Assembly: GCF_003201595.1 (NCBI RefSeq)
Contig: NZ_QJJS01000002.1
Coordinates: 212,416 to 276,415 of the forward strand
DNA: 64,000 nt
Direction: 5' to 3'
Source: Sphaerotilus hippei
GTDB taxonomy: Bacteria > Pseudomonadota > Gammaproteobacteria > Burkholderiales > Burkholderiaceae_C
The notes beneath the pieces are model-generated. The model was not told the DNA's origin. It saw only the letters and a list, made by a program, of their open reading frames with translations, and did not search any database. Shown one piece after another: positions 1,831 to 60,569 of this stretch. A program made the position numbers and the translations under genes. Positions within the stretch are counted from its first letter, which is position 1; every line of letters begins with the position of its first letter.

Positions 1831-4017
1831 TCAGAAGTCCATCTGCACGCTGGTGCGCCAGGTGCGCTCGGCCAGCGGGAAGAGGTAGGCGTGGCCGTAC
1901 TGGTAGGGCGATTCGCGCCAGGCGCGGCGGTTGGTGAGGTTGTCGACGCCGACGCGCCAGGTGAGCTGGCCGGCGGCGGTGGCCAGGTTCCAGCGGGTGC
2001 CCAGGCCCAGCGTGGTCCAGCCGGGGATGCGCACGCTGTTGTCCTGCGGCAGCACGACCCGCTCGGATTCGTGTGCCACCGTGCCGTGCAGCGTCAGGCC
2101 GGCGACCTGGGGCACGCGCCAGGACAGCTGCATCTTCAGGGTGCGCGAGGGCACGTCGTCCGGGCGGCTGTCGTCGAGCGTGGCCTCCTGGCTGTCCTCG
2201 ATGCGGGCGCGCAGCGCCATCGCGCTGGCCTGCAGCGTCCAGGCGCCCCGGGTGACGGCGCCGCTGGCCTCGATGCCGAGGTGGCGCTGGCGGCCGTCGA
2301 TGACGCGGGTGCAGCTGTCGTCGATGCTGGAGTCGCAGATGCCGCTGTCGGCGGCGCGGGGGCGGCGGATGTCGAACAGCGACAGCGAGCCGGTCAGCCC
2401 GGTGCGGGCGTACTTCAGGCCGATCTCGGTCTGGCGGCTGCGCAGCGCGGGCAGGGCGGTGCCGGCGTTGCTGTAGTGCGGCCGGTTGGCGACCACCTCG
2501 GACTCGATGCCCTGGCCCCAGCTGACGTAGGCCAGGGTCTGCGGCGTGAGCTGCCGCGACAGGGCCAGCCACGGCGTGGTGACACCCTGCCGGTAGGCGG
2601 TGGCCTCGCTGCCGTCGGTCTGTACGCTCTCGCGCTGCAGGCGGGTGTGGCGCAGGCCGGCCCACAGGCGCCAGTCGGCACCCAGGTCCATCGTGTCGCG
2701 GGCGTAGAACTCGGTGCTGCGCTCGGTGCGGTCGGTGTTGTTGTAGCTCAGCGTCGGGTCGGCGGCGGTGCGGCTGCTGGCGTCGATGGTGCCGGTGCCG
2801 ACGTAGTTGTAGGCCTGGCCCTGCAGGCGCACGCTGGTGCGCGTGCTCAGCACGCCCAGCTCGAGCTGGTGGCCGATGGCGCCGGTGCGGGCGCCGCCCC
2901 GCACCGACAGGTCGAGCGCGGCGGTGTCGCGACGTTCGTTCTCGCTGCGGAAGTCGTAGAGGTCGAAGCTGCCGTCGCTGCAGTAGCGGTCCCAGTTGCC
3001 TTCGGCCGAGCAGCCGTAGGCGTAGGCCAGGCGGTCCTGGCTGATCAGCTGCTGGCTCATGCCGTGAGCCTGGAAGCTCCAGCCGCCGCCCAGCTGCGAC
3101 AGCCAGCGCAGCGAGGCGGTGGTGCCGTCGGTGACCACCGGCAGCGACCAGGTCTGGTTGTTCAGGTTGGTGTTCGGGTCGATGCTGGCGGCGTCGGGCA
3201 GCCGGTTGCCGAGCAGGCTGAAGCCGGGGGCGCTGGCCTGCGAGCGGTGGCTGGTCTCGATCTCGGCCTCGAGCAGGTGGTCGGGGCTGATGCGCCAGTC
3301 GCCGGCGACCGACAGCAGCTGGTAGCGGCCGCGGGCTGAGGCGGTCTTGGGCGCCAGTTCCTGCCAGGCGGCGTTGACGCGCAGGCCGTGGCGCGCATCG
3401 GTGCCGAAACGTTCGGCGAGGTCGACGCTGGCGCCGACCGTGCCCCGCTCTTCCCAGCTCAGCGTGGCGGTGCGTTGGCTGGCCTGCGGGCGCTTGACCA
3501 ACAGGTTGACCAGGCCGCCCGGTGCGCTGGCACCGGCCTGGATGCCGCTGGTGCCCTTGAGGATCTCGACGGCGGCCTTGTTGTCCAGGCCCAGCGTGGT
3601 CTCGGCGTTGATCGGCAGGCCATCGCGGCGGTAGTTGCTGCGGTTGTCCAGCGTGTAGCCGCGCACCTTCAGGATGCTCCAGTAGCCGGCGGCGTTGTAG
3701 GCGTCGCTGACGGCTGCATCGGCGCGCGTCAGGCCGTTCAGGCTGGTGCTGCCCTGGTCCTGCAGCTGGGCCTGGGTGACGGTGGTGGTCTGGATCGGCG
3801 TGCGGGCGGCCGGCGCCAGGCCGAAGCCCGACACCGACGCGGCGGTGCTGCCGCTGCCGCTGACCACGACTGGCTCGAGCGTGCGGGTGTCGGACTGGGC
3901 CCGGGCGGGCAGCACGAGGCCGAGGGCCCCGGTGGCGCAGCAGAGCGCGGTCGCCTGGGCGACGAGGTGGCGGCGCGCGGACGCCGTCGGCAAGGAGGAG
4001 GGCAGGAAATCGGGCAT
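1831..4017 (-). CDS. TonB-dependent outer-membrane receptor, probable thiamine-class transporter
   Basis: A 728-residue outer-membrane beta-barrel receptor driven by TonB/ExbBD. The N-terminal signal peptide probably ends at ARAQS near residue 41. A TonB-box-like LEPVVVSG follows at about residues 47-54, then the plug domain with VEILKGTSGIQAGASAPGG. The barrel ends in QMDF, with the terminal phenylalanine typical of outer-membrane proteins. The family is usually called the TonB-dependent siderophore receptor family. The TPP riboswitch directly upstream argues that the real substrate is thiamine or a precursor such as hydroxymethylpyrimidine, not iron. No ribosome binding site is obvious before the ATG at 4017, so the start is moderately certain. 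It appears monocistronic. Confidence 0.9.
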   Translation of the reverse strand: MPDFLPSSLPTASARRHLVAQATALCCATGALGLVLPARAQSDTRTLEPVVVSGSGSTAASVSGFGLAPAARTPIQTTTVTQAQLQDQGSTSLNGLTRADAAVSDAYNAAGYWSILKVRGYTLDNRSNYRRDGLPINAETTLGLDNKAAVEILKGTSGIQAGASAPGGLVNLLVKRPQASQRTATLSWEERGTVGASVDLAERFGTDARHGLRVNAAWQELAPKTASARGRYQLLSVAGDWRISPDHLLEAEIETSHRSQASAPGFSLLGNRLPDAASIDPNTNLNNQTWSLPVVTDGTTASLRWLSQLGGGWSFQAHGMSQQLISQDRLAYAYGCSAEGNWDRYCSDGSFDLYDFRSENERRDTAALDLSVRGGARTGAIGHQLELGVLSTRTSVRLQGQAYNYVGTGTIDASSRTAADPTLSYNNTDRTERSTEFYARDTMDLGADWRLWAGLRHTRLQRESVQTDGSEATAYRQGVTTPWLALSRQLTPQTLAYVSWGQGIESEVVANRPHYSNAGTALPALRSRQTEIGLKYARTGLTGSLSLFDIRRPRAADSGICDSSIDDSCTRVIDGRQRHLGIEASGAVTRGAWTLQASAMALRARIEDSQEATLDDSRPDDVPSRTLKMQLSWRVPQVAGLTLHGTVAHESERVVLPQDNSVRIPGWTTLGLGTRWNLATAAGQLTWRVGVDNLTNRRAWRESPYQYGHAYLFPLAERTWRTSVQMDF

Positions 4018-4114
4018 GGCCTGGTGCAGCGGTCGGTGTCAGGTGGATCCTGCGCACGAGGCACCGGCCGGACGGCGGCGGCGATCGATCCTCGATGGTC
4101 CGCACCCTGCCAAG

Positions 4115-4212
4115 CCTGCTTCCCTGCGCGAGGATTACCTCAGATCAGGTTCAAAGGGACTGTCTCAGTCGCAGCGTCAGTCGTGACGTTGCAACACCCC
4201 CAGCGTGTCGGG
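4115..4212 (-). promoter_or_regulatory. TPP riboswitch (THI element)
   Basis: On the minus strand the segment carries the conserved thiamine pyrophosphate aptamer landmarks in order: GGGGGTG, CTGAGA, then CCCTTTGAACCTGATCTG, GGTAATCC and GCGCAGGGAAGC. It lies about 100 bases upstream of the TonB receptor start. High TPP should reduce receptor expression, as in known Gram-negative TPP switches. The expression platform between 4018 and 4114 is not obvious. Confidence 0.95.
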
Positions 4213-4234
4213 CCGCGTCTGCAGCCCGGTCGGC

Positions 4235-4263
4235 ATTATGTCCGAGCGTGTCGGCCGTGTGGA
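4235..4263 (-). promoter_or_regulatory. Putative promoter of the riboswitch-receptor unit
   Basis: CATAAT (-10, 4235-4240) lies 17 bases from TCCACA (-35, 4258-4263) on the minus strand. This puts the transcript start near 4228, just ahead of the riboswitch aptamer. Confidence 0.5.
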
Positions 4264-4318: not shown

Positions 4319-5425
4319 TCAGGCCGTCGGGGTAACGCCCAGCAGCTGCTGCAGGCGCGAGCTGCTCGAGGTGTACTGCAGCAGCGGTGCCTGCCCGCCG
4401 CGGCAGTGCGTGGCGATGGCGAAGGCGGCCATCGTGGCCTCGTGGAAACCGCAGAGGATCAGCTTCTTCTTGCCCGGATAGCTGACCACGTCGCCGATGG
4501 CATGGATGCCGGGCACGTTGGTGGCCATCGTGGCGGGGTCGACCGGCAGGTGCTTGCGCTCCAGGGCCAGGCCCCAGTCGGCCAGCGGGCCGAGCCGGGC
4601 GTGCAGGCCCTGGCAGACCAGCAGCAGGTCGAGCGGCAGGTGCACGTCCTCGCCCTGCGCATCGAGCACGCTGACGGCCGTCAGCGTGCCCACCTCCGAG
4701 GTGCTGCCGTCCGATTCGCCGCTGGTGCGCACCCCGGTGATCTGGCCCGCGAGCAGGCGCAGGCGACCGGCGGCGGCCGCGGCCTGCACCTGGGCGACCT
4801 GCGTGTCGCTGGCGGTGTAGACGCTGCGGCGGTGCAGCAGCGTGACGCTGGCCGCGTCGCTGCGGCTGAGCTGCAGCGCCTGCTGCAGCGCCATCTCGTC
4901 GCCGCCGGCGATGACGAGGTGGCGCCCGGCGAGCGTCAGACCGTCGGGCAGCTCGAGGTGGAAGACCTGGGTGTGCTCATGGGGCATCAGCGCGGCCACC
5001 GCCAGGCGGCGGGGCAGGAAGGCGCCGACCCCGGCGGCGATGACCACCGCGCGGGCCTGCAGCCGGGTGCCGGCCGACGTGAGCACGAGGAAGCCGCCCT
5101 CGTCGAGCGGCTGCACCTCGGTGACCTGCTGGTTCCAGTGCTGCCCGGGCCGGAACGGCTGCATCTGGCGCACCAGCGCCTCGACCAGGCCGTGGCCGGT
5201 GCACAGGGGCAGGGCGGGGATGTCGTAGATCGGCTTGTCCGCGTAGAGCTCGCGGACCTGCCCGCCCGGGCCGGGCAGTGCATCGACCAGTTCGGCGCGC
5301 AGCTCGAGCAGGCCGAGCTGGAAGACCTGGTAAAGCCCGGCCGGACCGGCACCGACGATGACCACGTCGGTGACGATCGTGCCGGGGAGCGAGCCGGAGC
5401 GGTCCTGGGGGGAGAGGTCCGTCAT
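4319..5425 (-). CDS. Ferredoxin-NADP+ reductase, thioredoxin-reductase-like
   Basis: A 368-residue flavoprotein. The N-terminal FAD-binding Rossmann motif VVIVGAGPAGLYQ is near residue 22, a second nucleotide fold with VIAGGDEMALQQ is near residue 170, and the FAD-contacting IHAIGDVVSYPGKKK is in the C-terminal third. It lacks the CxxC redox pair of true thioredoxin reductases. This fits the YumC-type ferredoxin/flavodoxin-NADP reductases, which move electrons between NADPH and ferredoxin in the cytoplasm. It begins 21 bases after fdxA at the tail of the sulfur-assimilation run. I infer that it feeds electrons to sulfite reductase, which has no CysJ partner here. Confidence 0.85.
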   Translation of the reverse strand: MTDLSPQDRSGSLPGTIVTDVVIVGAGPAGLYQVFQLGLLELRAELVDALPGPGGQVRELYADKPIYDIPALPLCTGHGLVEALVRQMQPFRPGQHWNQQVTEVQPLDEGGFLVLTSAGTRLQARAVVIAAGVGAFLPRRLAVAALMPHEHTQVFHLELPDGLTLAGRHLVIAGGDEMALQQALQLSRSDAASVTLLHRRSVYTASDTQVAQVQAAAAAGRLRLLAGQITGVRTSGESDGSTSEVGTLTAVSVLDAQGEDVHLPLDLLLVCQGLHARLGPLADWGLALERKHLPVDPATMATNVPGIHAIGDVVSYPGKKKLILCGFHEATMAAFAIATHCRGGQAPLLQYTSSSSRLQQLLGVTPTA

Positions 5426-59852: not shown

Positions 59853-59928
<76 letters not shown>

Positions 59929-59954
59929 TCAAGGCGTCTGGTGTTCCTGAGATT

Positions 59955-60030
59955 GACTCCTTCGTCTAGAGGCCTAGGACACGACCCTTTCACGGTCGTT
60001 ACAGGGGTTCGAATCCCCTAGGAGTCGCCA
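59955..60030 (+). tRNA. tRNA-Glu(TTC), copy 1
   Basis: 76 bases with acceptor GACTCCT/AGGAGTC, loop CTTTCAC with anticodon TTC, and encoded CCA. Identical to copies 2 and 3. Confidence 0.96.
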
Positions 60031-60034
60031 CTGC

Positions 60035-60111
60035 GGAGTGGTAGTTCAGTTGGTTAGAATACCGGCCTGTCACGCCGGGGGTCGCGGGTTCGAGTCCCGT
60101 CCACTCCGCCA
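60035..60111 (+). tRNA. tRNA-Asp(GTC), copy 1
   Basis: 77 bases with acceptor GGAGTGG/CCACTCC, anticodon GTC in CTGTCAC, and encoded CCA. Only four bases (CTGC) separate it from the preceding tRNA-Glu. Confidence 0.96.
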
Positions 60112-60117
60112 AAATTT

Positions 60118-60193
<76 letters not shown>

Positions 60194-60213
60194 AGTTTCC
60201 AGTCTTACCTGAT

Positions 60214-60289
60214 GACTCCTTCGTCTAGAGGCCTAGGACACGACCCTTTCACGGTCGTTACAGGGGTTCGAATCCCCTAGGAGTCGCCA
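60214..60289 (+). tRNA. tRNA-Glu(TTC), copy 2
   Basis: Identical to copy 1. The spacer from the preceding tRNA-Ala differs from that in the first unit. Confidence 0.96.
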
Positions 60290-60293
60290 CTGC

Positions 60294-60370
60294 GGAGTGG
60301 TAGTTCAGTTGGTTAGAATACCGGCCTGTCACGCCGGGGGTCGCGGGTTCGAGTCCCGTCCACTCCGCCA
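60294..60370 (+). tRNA. tRNA-Asp(GTC), copy 2
   Basis: Identical to copy 1, with the same four-base CTGC spacer from tRNA-Glu. Confidence 0.96.
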
Positions 60371-60391
60371 AGCATTTGTTTTCGATCTGTT

Positions 60392-60467
60392 GACTCCTTC
60401 GTCTAGAGGCCTAGGACACGACCCTTTCACGGTCGTTACAGGGGTTCGAATCCCCTAGGAGTCGCCA
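60392..60467 (+). tRNA. tRNA-Glu(TTC), copy 3
   Basis: Identical to copies 1 and 2. The third unit has no tRNA-Ala before it. Confidence 0.96.
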
Positions 60468-60492
60468 ACCCATCGCAGTTGGCACCTACCCG

Positions 60493-60569
60493 GGAGTGGT
60501 AGTTCAGTTGGTTAGAATACCGGCCTGTCACGCCGGGGGTCGCGGGTTCGAGTCCCGTCCACTCCGCCA
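60493..60569 (+). tRNA. tRNA-Asp(GTC), copy 3
   Basis: Identical to the other copies, but the spacer from tRNA-Glu is 25 bases instead of four. It is the last tRNA of the array. Confidence 0.96.

What the first reader, a model, noticed from the sequence alone, without database searches (positions are those of the whole stretch)
1831..4263. TonB-dependent receptor controlled by a TPP riboswitch
A clear TPP aptamer with its own promoter directly precedes a receptor that family-based annotation would call siderophore-specific. Riboswitch logic instead predicts thiamine or pyrimidine-moiety import across the outer membrane. No other thiamine gene is nearby, so the substrate call rests on the riboswitch.
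Basis: partly seen in the sequence, partly recalled or inferred. Interest (0 to 1): 0.7.

Follow-up and report, generated by a model that had tools for sequence, protein, structure and literature searches.

The report
Thiamine-riboswitch outer-membrane vitamin B1 receptor
A bacterial outer-membrane receptor that software would label an iron-scavenging protein is preceded by an RNA switch that senses vitamin B1, and comparison with relatives indicates that it most likely imports vitamin B1; close relatives have been reported before.

Summary
A TPP (thiamine pyrophosphate) aptamer lies at 4211-4104 on the minus strand, 86 nt before a 728-residue TonB-dependent receptor (4017-1831), with a sigma-70-like promoter at 4263-4235. 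The aptamer scores 48.2 bits, below Rfam's cut-off of 54.3, but E = 2e-8. The receptor narrowly passes the "siderophore receptor" model (231.7 vs 223.5).

The thiamine reading no longer rests on the riboswitch alone. An aptamer directly precedes 22 of 49 related receptors in 40 genomes of the order, and 61 of 80 named loci. TPP-linked receptors group apart from FhuA, FhuE, Fiu and BtuB. PnuC/PnuT-family transporters (over 100 bits) occur in 24 of 25 genomes with a receptor at 33% identity or more, against 30 of 275 others. In 14 of 27 receptor genomes ThiC and full-length ThiG are both missing, which favours import of whole thiamine. In Variovorax and Xenophilus the receptor follows thiO-thiG-thiE.

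The window's receptor stands alone; its likely partners, a PnuT-like transporter and a NadR-like kinase, lie together elsewhere in the genome. Uptake and regulation were not tested. Thiamine-linked TonB receptors are already predicted in print, for a Variovorax operon too, and one Bacteroides case was tested genetically. New member of a known kind.

The parts
1831..4017 (-). TonB-dependent receptor, 728 aa, predicted thiamine transporter of the outer membrane
   Evidence: ORF; Plug and barrel; TIGR01783 above cut-off; AlphaFold2 plug-and-barrel model, mean pLDDT 85.6
3895..4017 (-). signal peptide, residues 1-41 ending ARAQ (read by eye, no predictor run)
   Evidence: translation; inspection
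3859..3882 (-). TonB-box-like stretch TLEPVVVS, residues 46-53 (by eye)
   Evidence: translation; inspection
4104..4211 (-). TPP riboswitch aptamer (RF00059, below Rfam gathering score)
   Evidence: 48.2 bits, E 2e-8; 85.7 bits with a model built on relatives and on itself; covariation
4235..4263 (-). sigma-70-like promoter TCCACA-17-CATAAT
   Evidence: -10-like hexamer at a similar place in close relatives
4018..4103 (-). leader between aptamer and start codon; expression platform not identified, weak Shine-Dalgarno (by eye)
   Evidence: no intrinsic terminator
4319..5425 (-). conserved upstream neighbour: pyridine-nucleotide-disulphide-type oxidoreductase, here called FNR-like (name recalled; context only)
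   Evidence: PF07992, no NCBIfam model over cut-off; same neighbour in L063, L064, L065, L197
5447..5770 (-). ferredoxin FdxA (context only)
   Evidence: NF045490 174.3 bits, cut-off 135; conserved context

Best explanation
The locus is a thiamine-salvage receptor. When cellular TPP is low, the promoter at 4263-4235 gives an mRNA whose leader leaves the receptor expressed. When TPP is high it binds the aptamer and expression is lowered, probably at translation initiation. The receptor, powered by TonB, brings thiamine across the outer membrane. A PnuT-like facilitator encoded elsewhere in the genome carries it across the inner membrane, a NadR-like kinase encoded beside PnuT phosphorylates it to thiamine monophosphate, and ThiL finishes TPP. 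Shown here: aptamer, receptor family, genomic linkage, co-occurrence and pathway gene content. Inferred: substrate, sign of regulation, level of control, and the roles of PnuT and the kinase.
For: Aptamer E 2e-8. Aptamer directly upstream of 22 of 49 receptor places in 40 of 300 genomes: 20 of the 25 places at 33% identity or more, plus G280, where a 43-nt 3' piece of an aptamer stands at the contig end, and 2 of the 24 weaker ones. Model R1 finds an aptamer upstream in 61 of 80 named loci. Rfam's own model, run on the genomes of 38 of these 80 loci, maps within 250 nt before the match in 28, overlaps its start by 4 nt in L165, lies 5.3-5.6 kb upstream in 7, and is not found within 7 kb upstream in L124 and L155. 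Covariation: 97.4% of cells paired, 50 cells with a change on both sides against 16.5 in shuffles (the structure came from the same alignment). Clade: 23 TPP-linked receptors (G280 counted as linked) plus 4 unlinked ones hold together at 96/97 apart from FhuA, FhuE, Fiu, BtuB and four other homologues; 2 changes of label against 10.0 shuffled. PF04973 over 100 bits in 24 of 25 receptor genomes against 30 of 275 others; none over cut-off in 5 same-family genomes without receptor. PnuT with AAA_28 kinase next downstream in 21 of 27 receptor genomes. ThiC and full-length ThiG both missing in the same 14 of 27 receptor genomes, ThiL present in 13 of those 14. In Variovorax and Xenophilus loci the receptor follows thiO-thiG-thiE, with a TPP aptamer before cytX. 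Own genome: PnuT and kinase at G000:C7.
Against: No uptake, binding or expression data. By sequence profile the best solved relatives are siderophore receptors (FemA, BauA, FhuA), and by fold the enantiopyochelin receptor, FemA, BauA and FptA lead; this shows ancestry, not substrate. NCBIfam would name the own genome's transporter PnuC, nicotinamide riboside (TIGR01528 86.1, cut-off 42.45), and the kinase resembles NadR, so nicotinamide riboside is not excluded for that pair. Four receptors inside the clade (G285, G119, G007, G178) have no aptamer. G025 has receptor and aptamer but no full-length PnuC. The own genome has ThiC, ThiG and ThiL, so import is probably not essential there. The window's start codon lacks the Shine-Dalgarno sequence and the anti-start hairpin seen in several relatives. 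In B. thetaiotaomicron the transporter genes beside TPP riboswitches changed little with thiamine (PMC5613172, passages).
Confidence: 0.85

Rival explanations
1. The receptor imports a thiamine precursor (hydroxymethylpyrimidine or a thiazole) or a thiamine phosphate rather than thiamine itself.
For: In Variovorax and Xenophilus the receptor shares its gene cluster with a CytX-like permease (TIGR02358 229.3 bits, below its cut-off 309.85), which suggests pyrimidine uptake there. The aptamer senses TPP whatever is imported.
Against: 14 of 27 receptor genomes lack ThiC and full-length ThiG, and all 14 have PnuC/PnuT and 13 have ThiL, which fits whole thiamine. ThiE and ThiM were not searched in those genomes, so salvage of both halves is not excluded.
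Confidence: 0.1
2. It is a ferric-siderophore receptor that has come under thiamine control, or whose aptamer is a bystander.
For: TIGR01783 above cut-off; nearest solved chains are siderophore receptors.
Against: No Fur box above background. Aptamer linkage conserved over receptors down to 27-28% identity, and PnuT co-occurrence. The receptor clade lies apart from FhuA, FhuE and Fiu.
Confidence: 0.04
3. The system imports nicotinamide riboside: receptor, PnuC and NadR-like kinase form an NAD-salvage path.
For: PnuC-family call by TIGR01528 and NadR-like kinase.
Against: TPP aptamers precede the receptors. The receptor sits beside thiO-thiG-thiE in four Variovorax loci and in Xenophilus. [quoted passage not shown]
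Confidence: 0.03

Closest known systems
Variovorax TPP-riboswitch thiamine operon with a TonB-dependent receptor (Hessler et al. 2023, PMC10409787; passages seen)
   Same: TPP-regulated, Burkholderiales, receptor predicted to take up thiamine; the Variovorax receptors found here are 44-48% identical to the window's, and in the four loci extended they follow thiO-thiG-thiE.
   Different: In the window only aptamer and receptor are at the site; thiC and thiG are on contig C3 and PnuT with its kinase on contig C7. In that paper the receptor's role is a prediction.
Bacteroides thetaiotaomicron OMthi BT2390 (PMC5613172; passages seen)
   Same: TonB-dependent outer-membrane transporter under a TPP riboswitch with a PnuT partner; in a biosynthesis mutant its loss raised the thiamine EC50 from 2.8 to 15.8 nM.
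   Different: Bacteroidetes. Sequence relation to the window's receptor was not tested here.
Predicted thiamin TonB-dependent transporters (Rodionov et al. 2002, known here only through its citation in PMC2771747 and PMC3400609; passages)
   Same: Substrate predicted from TPP control or neighbouring pnuT.
   Different: PMC2771747 says the assignments remained to be proven and places them in three regions of its cluster map; which of them, if any, holds this family was not tested.
TonB-dependent siderophore receptors (TIGR01783; FemA, BauA, FptA, FhuA)
   Same: Plug and barrel fold, sequence family.
   Different: No Fur site found, TPP aptamer upstream, separate clade from FhuA, FhuE and Fiu; FemA, BauA and FptA were not in the tree.

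Membership tests
TPP riboswitch (RF00059) | full-length match to the covariance model | tested here: met
   1-105 of 105, E 2e-8, 48.2 bits
TPP riboswitch (RF00059) | score at or above Rfam gathering cut-off 54.3 | tested here: not met
   48.2 bits; relatives G264 54.4, G171 51.2, G234 52.3 straddle it
TPP riboswitch (RF00059) | conserved ligand-site motifs and covarying helices | tested here: met
   (motif roles recalled)
TPP riboswitch (RF00059) | binds TPP and changes expression | not testable with these tools
   needs in-line probing or a reporter
TonB-dependent receptor | Plug and beta-barrel domains, signal peptide | tested here: met
Thiamine-specific TonB-dependent transporter | TPP control element at the gene, conserved in relatives | tested here: met
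   22 of 49 places, 61 of 80 loci; that it controls the gene is not shown
Thiamine-specific TonB-dependent transporter | partner inner-membrane thiamine transporter in the genome | tested here: inconclusive
   PF04973 protein at G000:C7, but family models call it PnuC
Thiamine-specific TonB-dependent transporter | thiamine uptake across the outer membrane | not testable with these tools
   no experiment
Ferric siderophore receptor | TIGR01783 cut-off | tested here: met
   231.7 vs 223.5 bits
Ferric siderophore receptor | Fur-controlled promoter | tested here: not met

The most novel reading that the evidence does not exclude
In these Burkholderiales the TonB receptor, a PnuT facilitator and an unrecognised thiamine kinase of the NadR-like AAA_28 family form a complete outer-membrane-to-cofactor salvage path (receptor, PnuT, kinase, ThiL). 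The kinase is replaced by an unrelated APH-fold kinase in one lineage, and the path has become the sole thiamine source in many lineages that lost both thiC and thiG.
Probability: 0.5. Interest if true: 0.55.

Novelty: new member of a known kind. Interest (0 to 1): 0.4.

Why it matters
Family annotation would call such receptors iron-siderophore receptors and the partner transporter a nicotinamide riboside transporter, so thiamine uptake, and thiamine auxotrophy met by uptake, would be overlooked in many environmental Betaproteobacteria. The window's aptamer also escapes a default Rfam scan. The family gives clean, testable cases, including close relatives that lack thiC and thiG.

Tried and rejected
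Rfam at the gathering threshold: no TPP hit in the window; an E-value scan was needed.

Fur control: no site above background.

Intrinsic terminator as expression platform: none found.

Start-codon hairpin as platform: in relatives such as L115, L117, L119 and L173 the leader holds TGCCATCG, complementary to the start region CGATGGCA, with variants such as TGCCGTCGA/TCGATGGCA in L172 and L160. But only 15 of 56 leaders tested (55 relatives and the window) fell at 5 or fewer of 100 mononucleotide shuffles, 12 of these 15 with a stem of this TGCC/TGCT or GCCATCG type; the window did not (71 of 100). Five loci were skipped because no ATG, or too short a leader, was found; L164, whose aptamer is cut off at the contig end, was not entered. 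So this hairpin is not claimed for the window. Start codons were picked by a simple rule, and many starts are uncertain.

Regulation of the PnuT-kinase pair by TPP in the own genome: no aptamer found there.

APH kinase as an orthologue of E. coli ThiK: no significant similarity.

Fold comparison: all 50 rows listed are TonB-dependent transporters of many substrates, so fold does not tell the substrate. No thiamine transporter is named among the listed rows; that is no evidence against one.

The Fisher tests ignore shared ancestry. The list of 54 genomes with PF04973 over 100 bits was typed; partial and weaker matches were left out (72 of 300 genomes have a match at E <= 0.001, 61 over the family cut-off). 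Three of the 14 genomes counted as lacking ThiG (G017, G147, G210) have short matches of 19.5-23.9 bits, one of them (G210) over the loose cut-off of 23.

The Rfam model gives 28 of 38 near, 1 overlapping the match start, 7 at 5.3-5.6 kb and 2 not found (contigs taken as the same by position).

Of the 19 named loci without a near aptamer, L124 has only 44 bases before the match. Seven Variovorax loci (L128, L129, L130, L132, L134, L136, L138) have one 5.3-5.6 kb upstream; four of these (L128, L129, L132, L138) were extended and read, and the aptamer stands before cytX. The other 11 were not followed. In these loci thiD lies on the other strand between cytX and thiO (by position in L196 and L197), so it is not shown that the aptamer's transcript reaches the receptor.

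Literature: ten searches of the held library. Rodionov 2002 was not read; the PnuT paper (Jaehme 2018) is not held.

Full report
What is there. On the minus strand a 728-aa TonB-dependent receptor is encoded at 4017-1831. NCBIfam's siderophore-receptor model passes, narrowly (231.7 vs 223.5 bits). A full-length TPP aptamer match lies at 4211-4104 with 48.2 bits and E = 2e-8. The score is under Rfam's gathering cut-off of 54.3, so the default scan of the window lists only tRNAs. Against the model one short hairpin is missing, the other arm has an insertion and P1 has mismatches, but the conserved aptamer motifs are intact. A sigma-70-like promoter stands just before it, and a -10-like hexamer lies 23-29 nt before the aptamer in 7 of 12 relatives scanned. 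No Fur site above background and no terminator were found.

Is it more than chance? Yes. Of 49 places in 40 of 300 genomes of the order that encode a relative of the receptor at E <= 1e-40 (own genome included), 22 have a TPP aptamer 66-306 nt before the aligned start on the same strand. Of the 25 places at 33% identity or more, 20 have one. A twenty-first, G280, has a truncated aptamer at its contig end. The other four (G285, G119, G007, G178) have none; a permissive scan agrees. Of the 24 weaker places, 2 have one. A covariance model built from 21 aptamers finds one upstream of the receptor in 61 of 80 named loci (64 matches, of which one is the window and two are second matches in L158 and L146; some of these loci repeat training sequences). 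Rfam's own model, run on the genomes of 38 of the 80, places an aptamer within 250 nt before the match in 28, overlapping its start in 1, and 5.3-5.6 kb upstream in 7 Variovorax loci; in 2 none was found. Titles include Piscinibacter, Variovorax, Xylophilus, Ramlibacter, Massilia, Janthinobacterium and Noviherbaspirillum. On the 21-row alignment 97.4% of cells form standard pairs, and 50 cells show changes on both sides against 16.5 in shuffles; sliding the partners lowers this to at most 14 cells. The structure was derived from the same alignment, which favours it.

Relation to other receptors. In a tree of 35 receptors all 23 TPP-linked ones (counting G280 as linked) and the four unlinked receptors of G285, G119, G007 and G178 form one group (96/97), apart from FhuA, FhuE, Fiu, BtuB and four other homologues, among them one from the window's own genome. 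The label needs 2 changes against 10.0 in shuffles. The window's receptor is nearest to G264, G171 and G234 of the same family (100/100). The unlinked four probably lost the aptamer, or the aptamer was gained twice; the tree does not decide.

Partners. Next to many receptors lie a PnuC-family transporter (PF04973) and a NadR-like kinase (PF13521). In the 300-genome draw a PF04973 match over 100 bits is present in 24 of 25 genomes with a receptor at 33% identity or more, and in 30 of 275 others (Fisher p 1.8e-19, shared ancestry ignored). Five same-family genomes without the receptor have none over the cut-off. The transporter is followed directly by the kinase in 21 of 27 receptor genomes examined. 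In L083 and L084 an APH-fold kinase follows the transporter instead; in L085 it precedes it, and L086 has that kinase beside the receptor with the transporter elsewhere. The APH kinase shows no significant similarity to E. coli ThiK. In the window's own genome the transporter and kinase are together on contig C7, behind what by eye is enolase, without an aptamer.

Which substrate? ThiC is missing in 14 of 27 receptor genomes and full-length ThiG in the same 14 (three of them have short weak ThiG matches); ThiL is present in 13 of those 14. All five same-family genomes without the receptor have ThiC and ThiG. Organisms lacking both halves of the pathway but keeping ThiL are best explained by uptake of whole thiamine and its phosphorylation. 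ThiE and ThiM were not searched, so uptake of both halves is not excluded. The window's genome has ThiC, ThiG and ThiL, so there the receptor would serve salvage.

Where it came from. In four Variovorax loci (L195, L196, L199, L200) and in Xenophilus (L197) the receptor follows thiO-thiG-thiE, with a TPP aptamer before a CytX-like gene further upstream; Xenophilus has a second aptamer directly before the receptor. In Curvibacter (L198) aptamers precede both thiO and the receptor. An FNR-like oxidoreductase and a ferredoxin flank this site in the window, in L063, L064, L065 and in L197. So the window's arrangement is a short version of a thiamine locus in which only aptamer and receptor stand at that place. 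Whether genes were lost from it or added in the others is inference.

Mechanism. Shown: the parts and their conservation. Inferred: low TPP allows expression and high TPP lowers it; TonB-driven thiamine uptake; onward transport by PnuT; phosphorylation by the kinase; ThiL. The level of control is open. Several relatives have a hairpin that would mask the start codon (15 of 56 leaders at 5 or fewer of 100 shuffles), but the window does not, and its Shine-Dalgarno sequence is weak.

What is known. PMC5613172 (passages) tested the Bacteroides OMthi-PnuT pair genetically. PMC2771747 and PMC3400609 (passages) list predicted thiamin receptors. PMC10409787 (passages) describes a Variovorax TPP operon with a TonB-dependent receptor predicted to transport thiamine. 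PMC7749635 (passages) notes that PnuC-like specificity can be predicted from the riboswitch class. In ten searches of the held library I saw, in listings and the passages opened, no test of a thiamine receptor in Betaproteobacteria and no report of the NadR-like kinase as a thiamine kinase; most subscription papers are not held. Verdict: new member of a known kind, with a well-supported substrate prediction.

Noticed in passing
L205, L206, L208 (same-family genomes without the receptor: G204, G133, G093): A TPP aptamer (RF00059 50.7, 48.6 and 54.1 bits; R1 39-42 bits) stands directly before LuxE-like and LuxC-like genes followed by an ABC ATPase. Families were checked for L206 (LuxE, LuxC) and for an NMT1/THI5-like binding protein in L208; the rest is by eye. 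TPP control of lux-type genes is unexpected.
   Followed up: partly
L093 4687-7592 (own genome, contig C3): Divergent from the thiC aptamer is an ORF that by eye looks like an NMT1/THI5-type substrate-binding protein, followed by a large ORF of unknown type; no family search was run on either.
   Followed up: no
window 59853-60566: Array of eight tRNA genes: three copies scoring 70.4 bits alternate with copies at 62.9 (two) and 57.3 bits (three), as if a tRNA unit had been duplicated.
   Followed up: no
L083, L084, L085, L086: Receptors of the same clade with a PnuC-family transporter (adjacent in the first three) and an APH-fold kinase but no TPP aptamer: either a regulator change or another substrate.
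   Followed up: partly
L193: A receptor with TPP aptamer on a contig titled Elusimicrobiota MAG; possibly a misbinned Betaproteobacterial contig.
   Followed up: no
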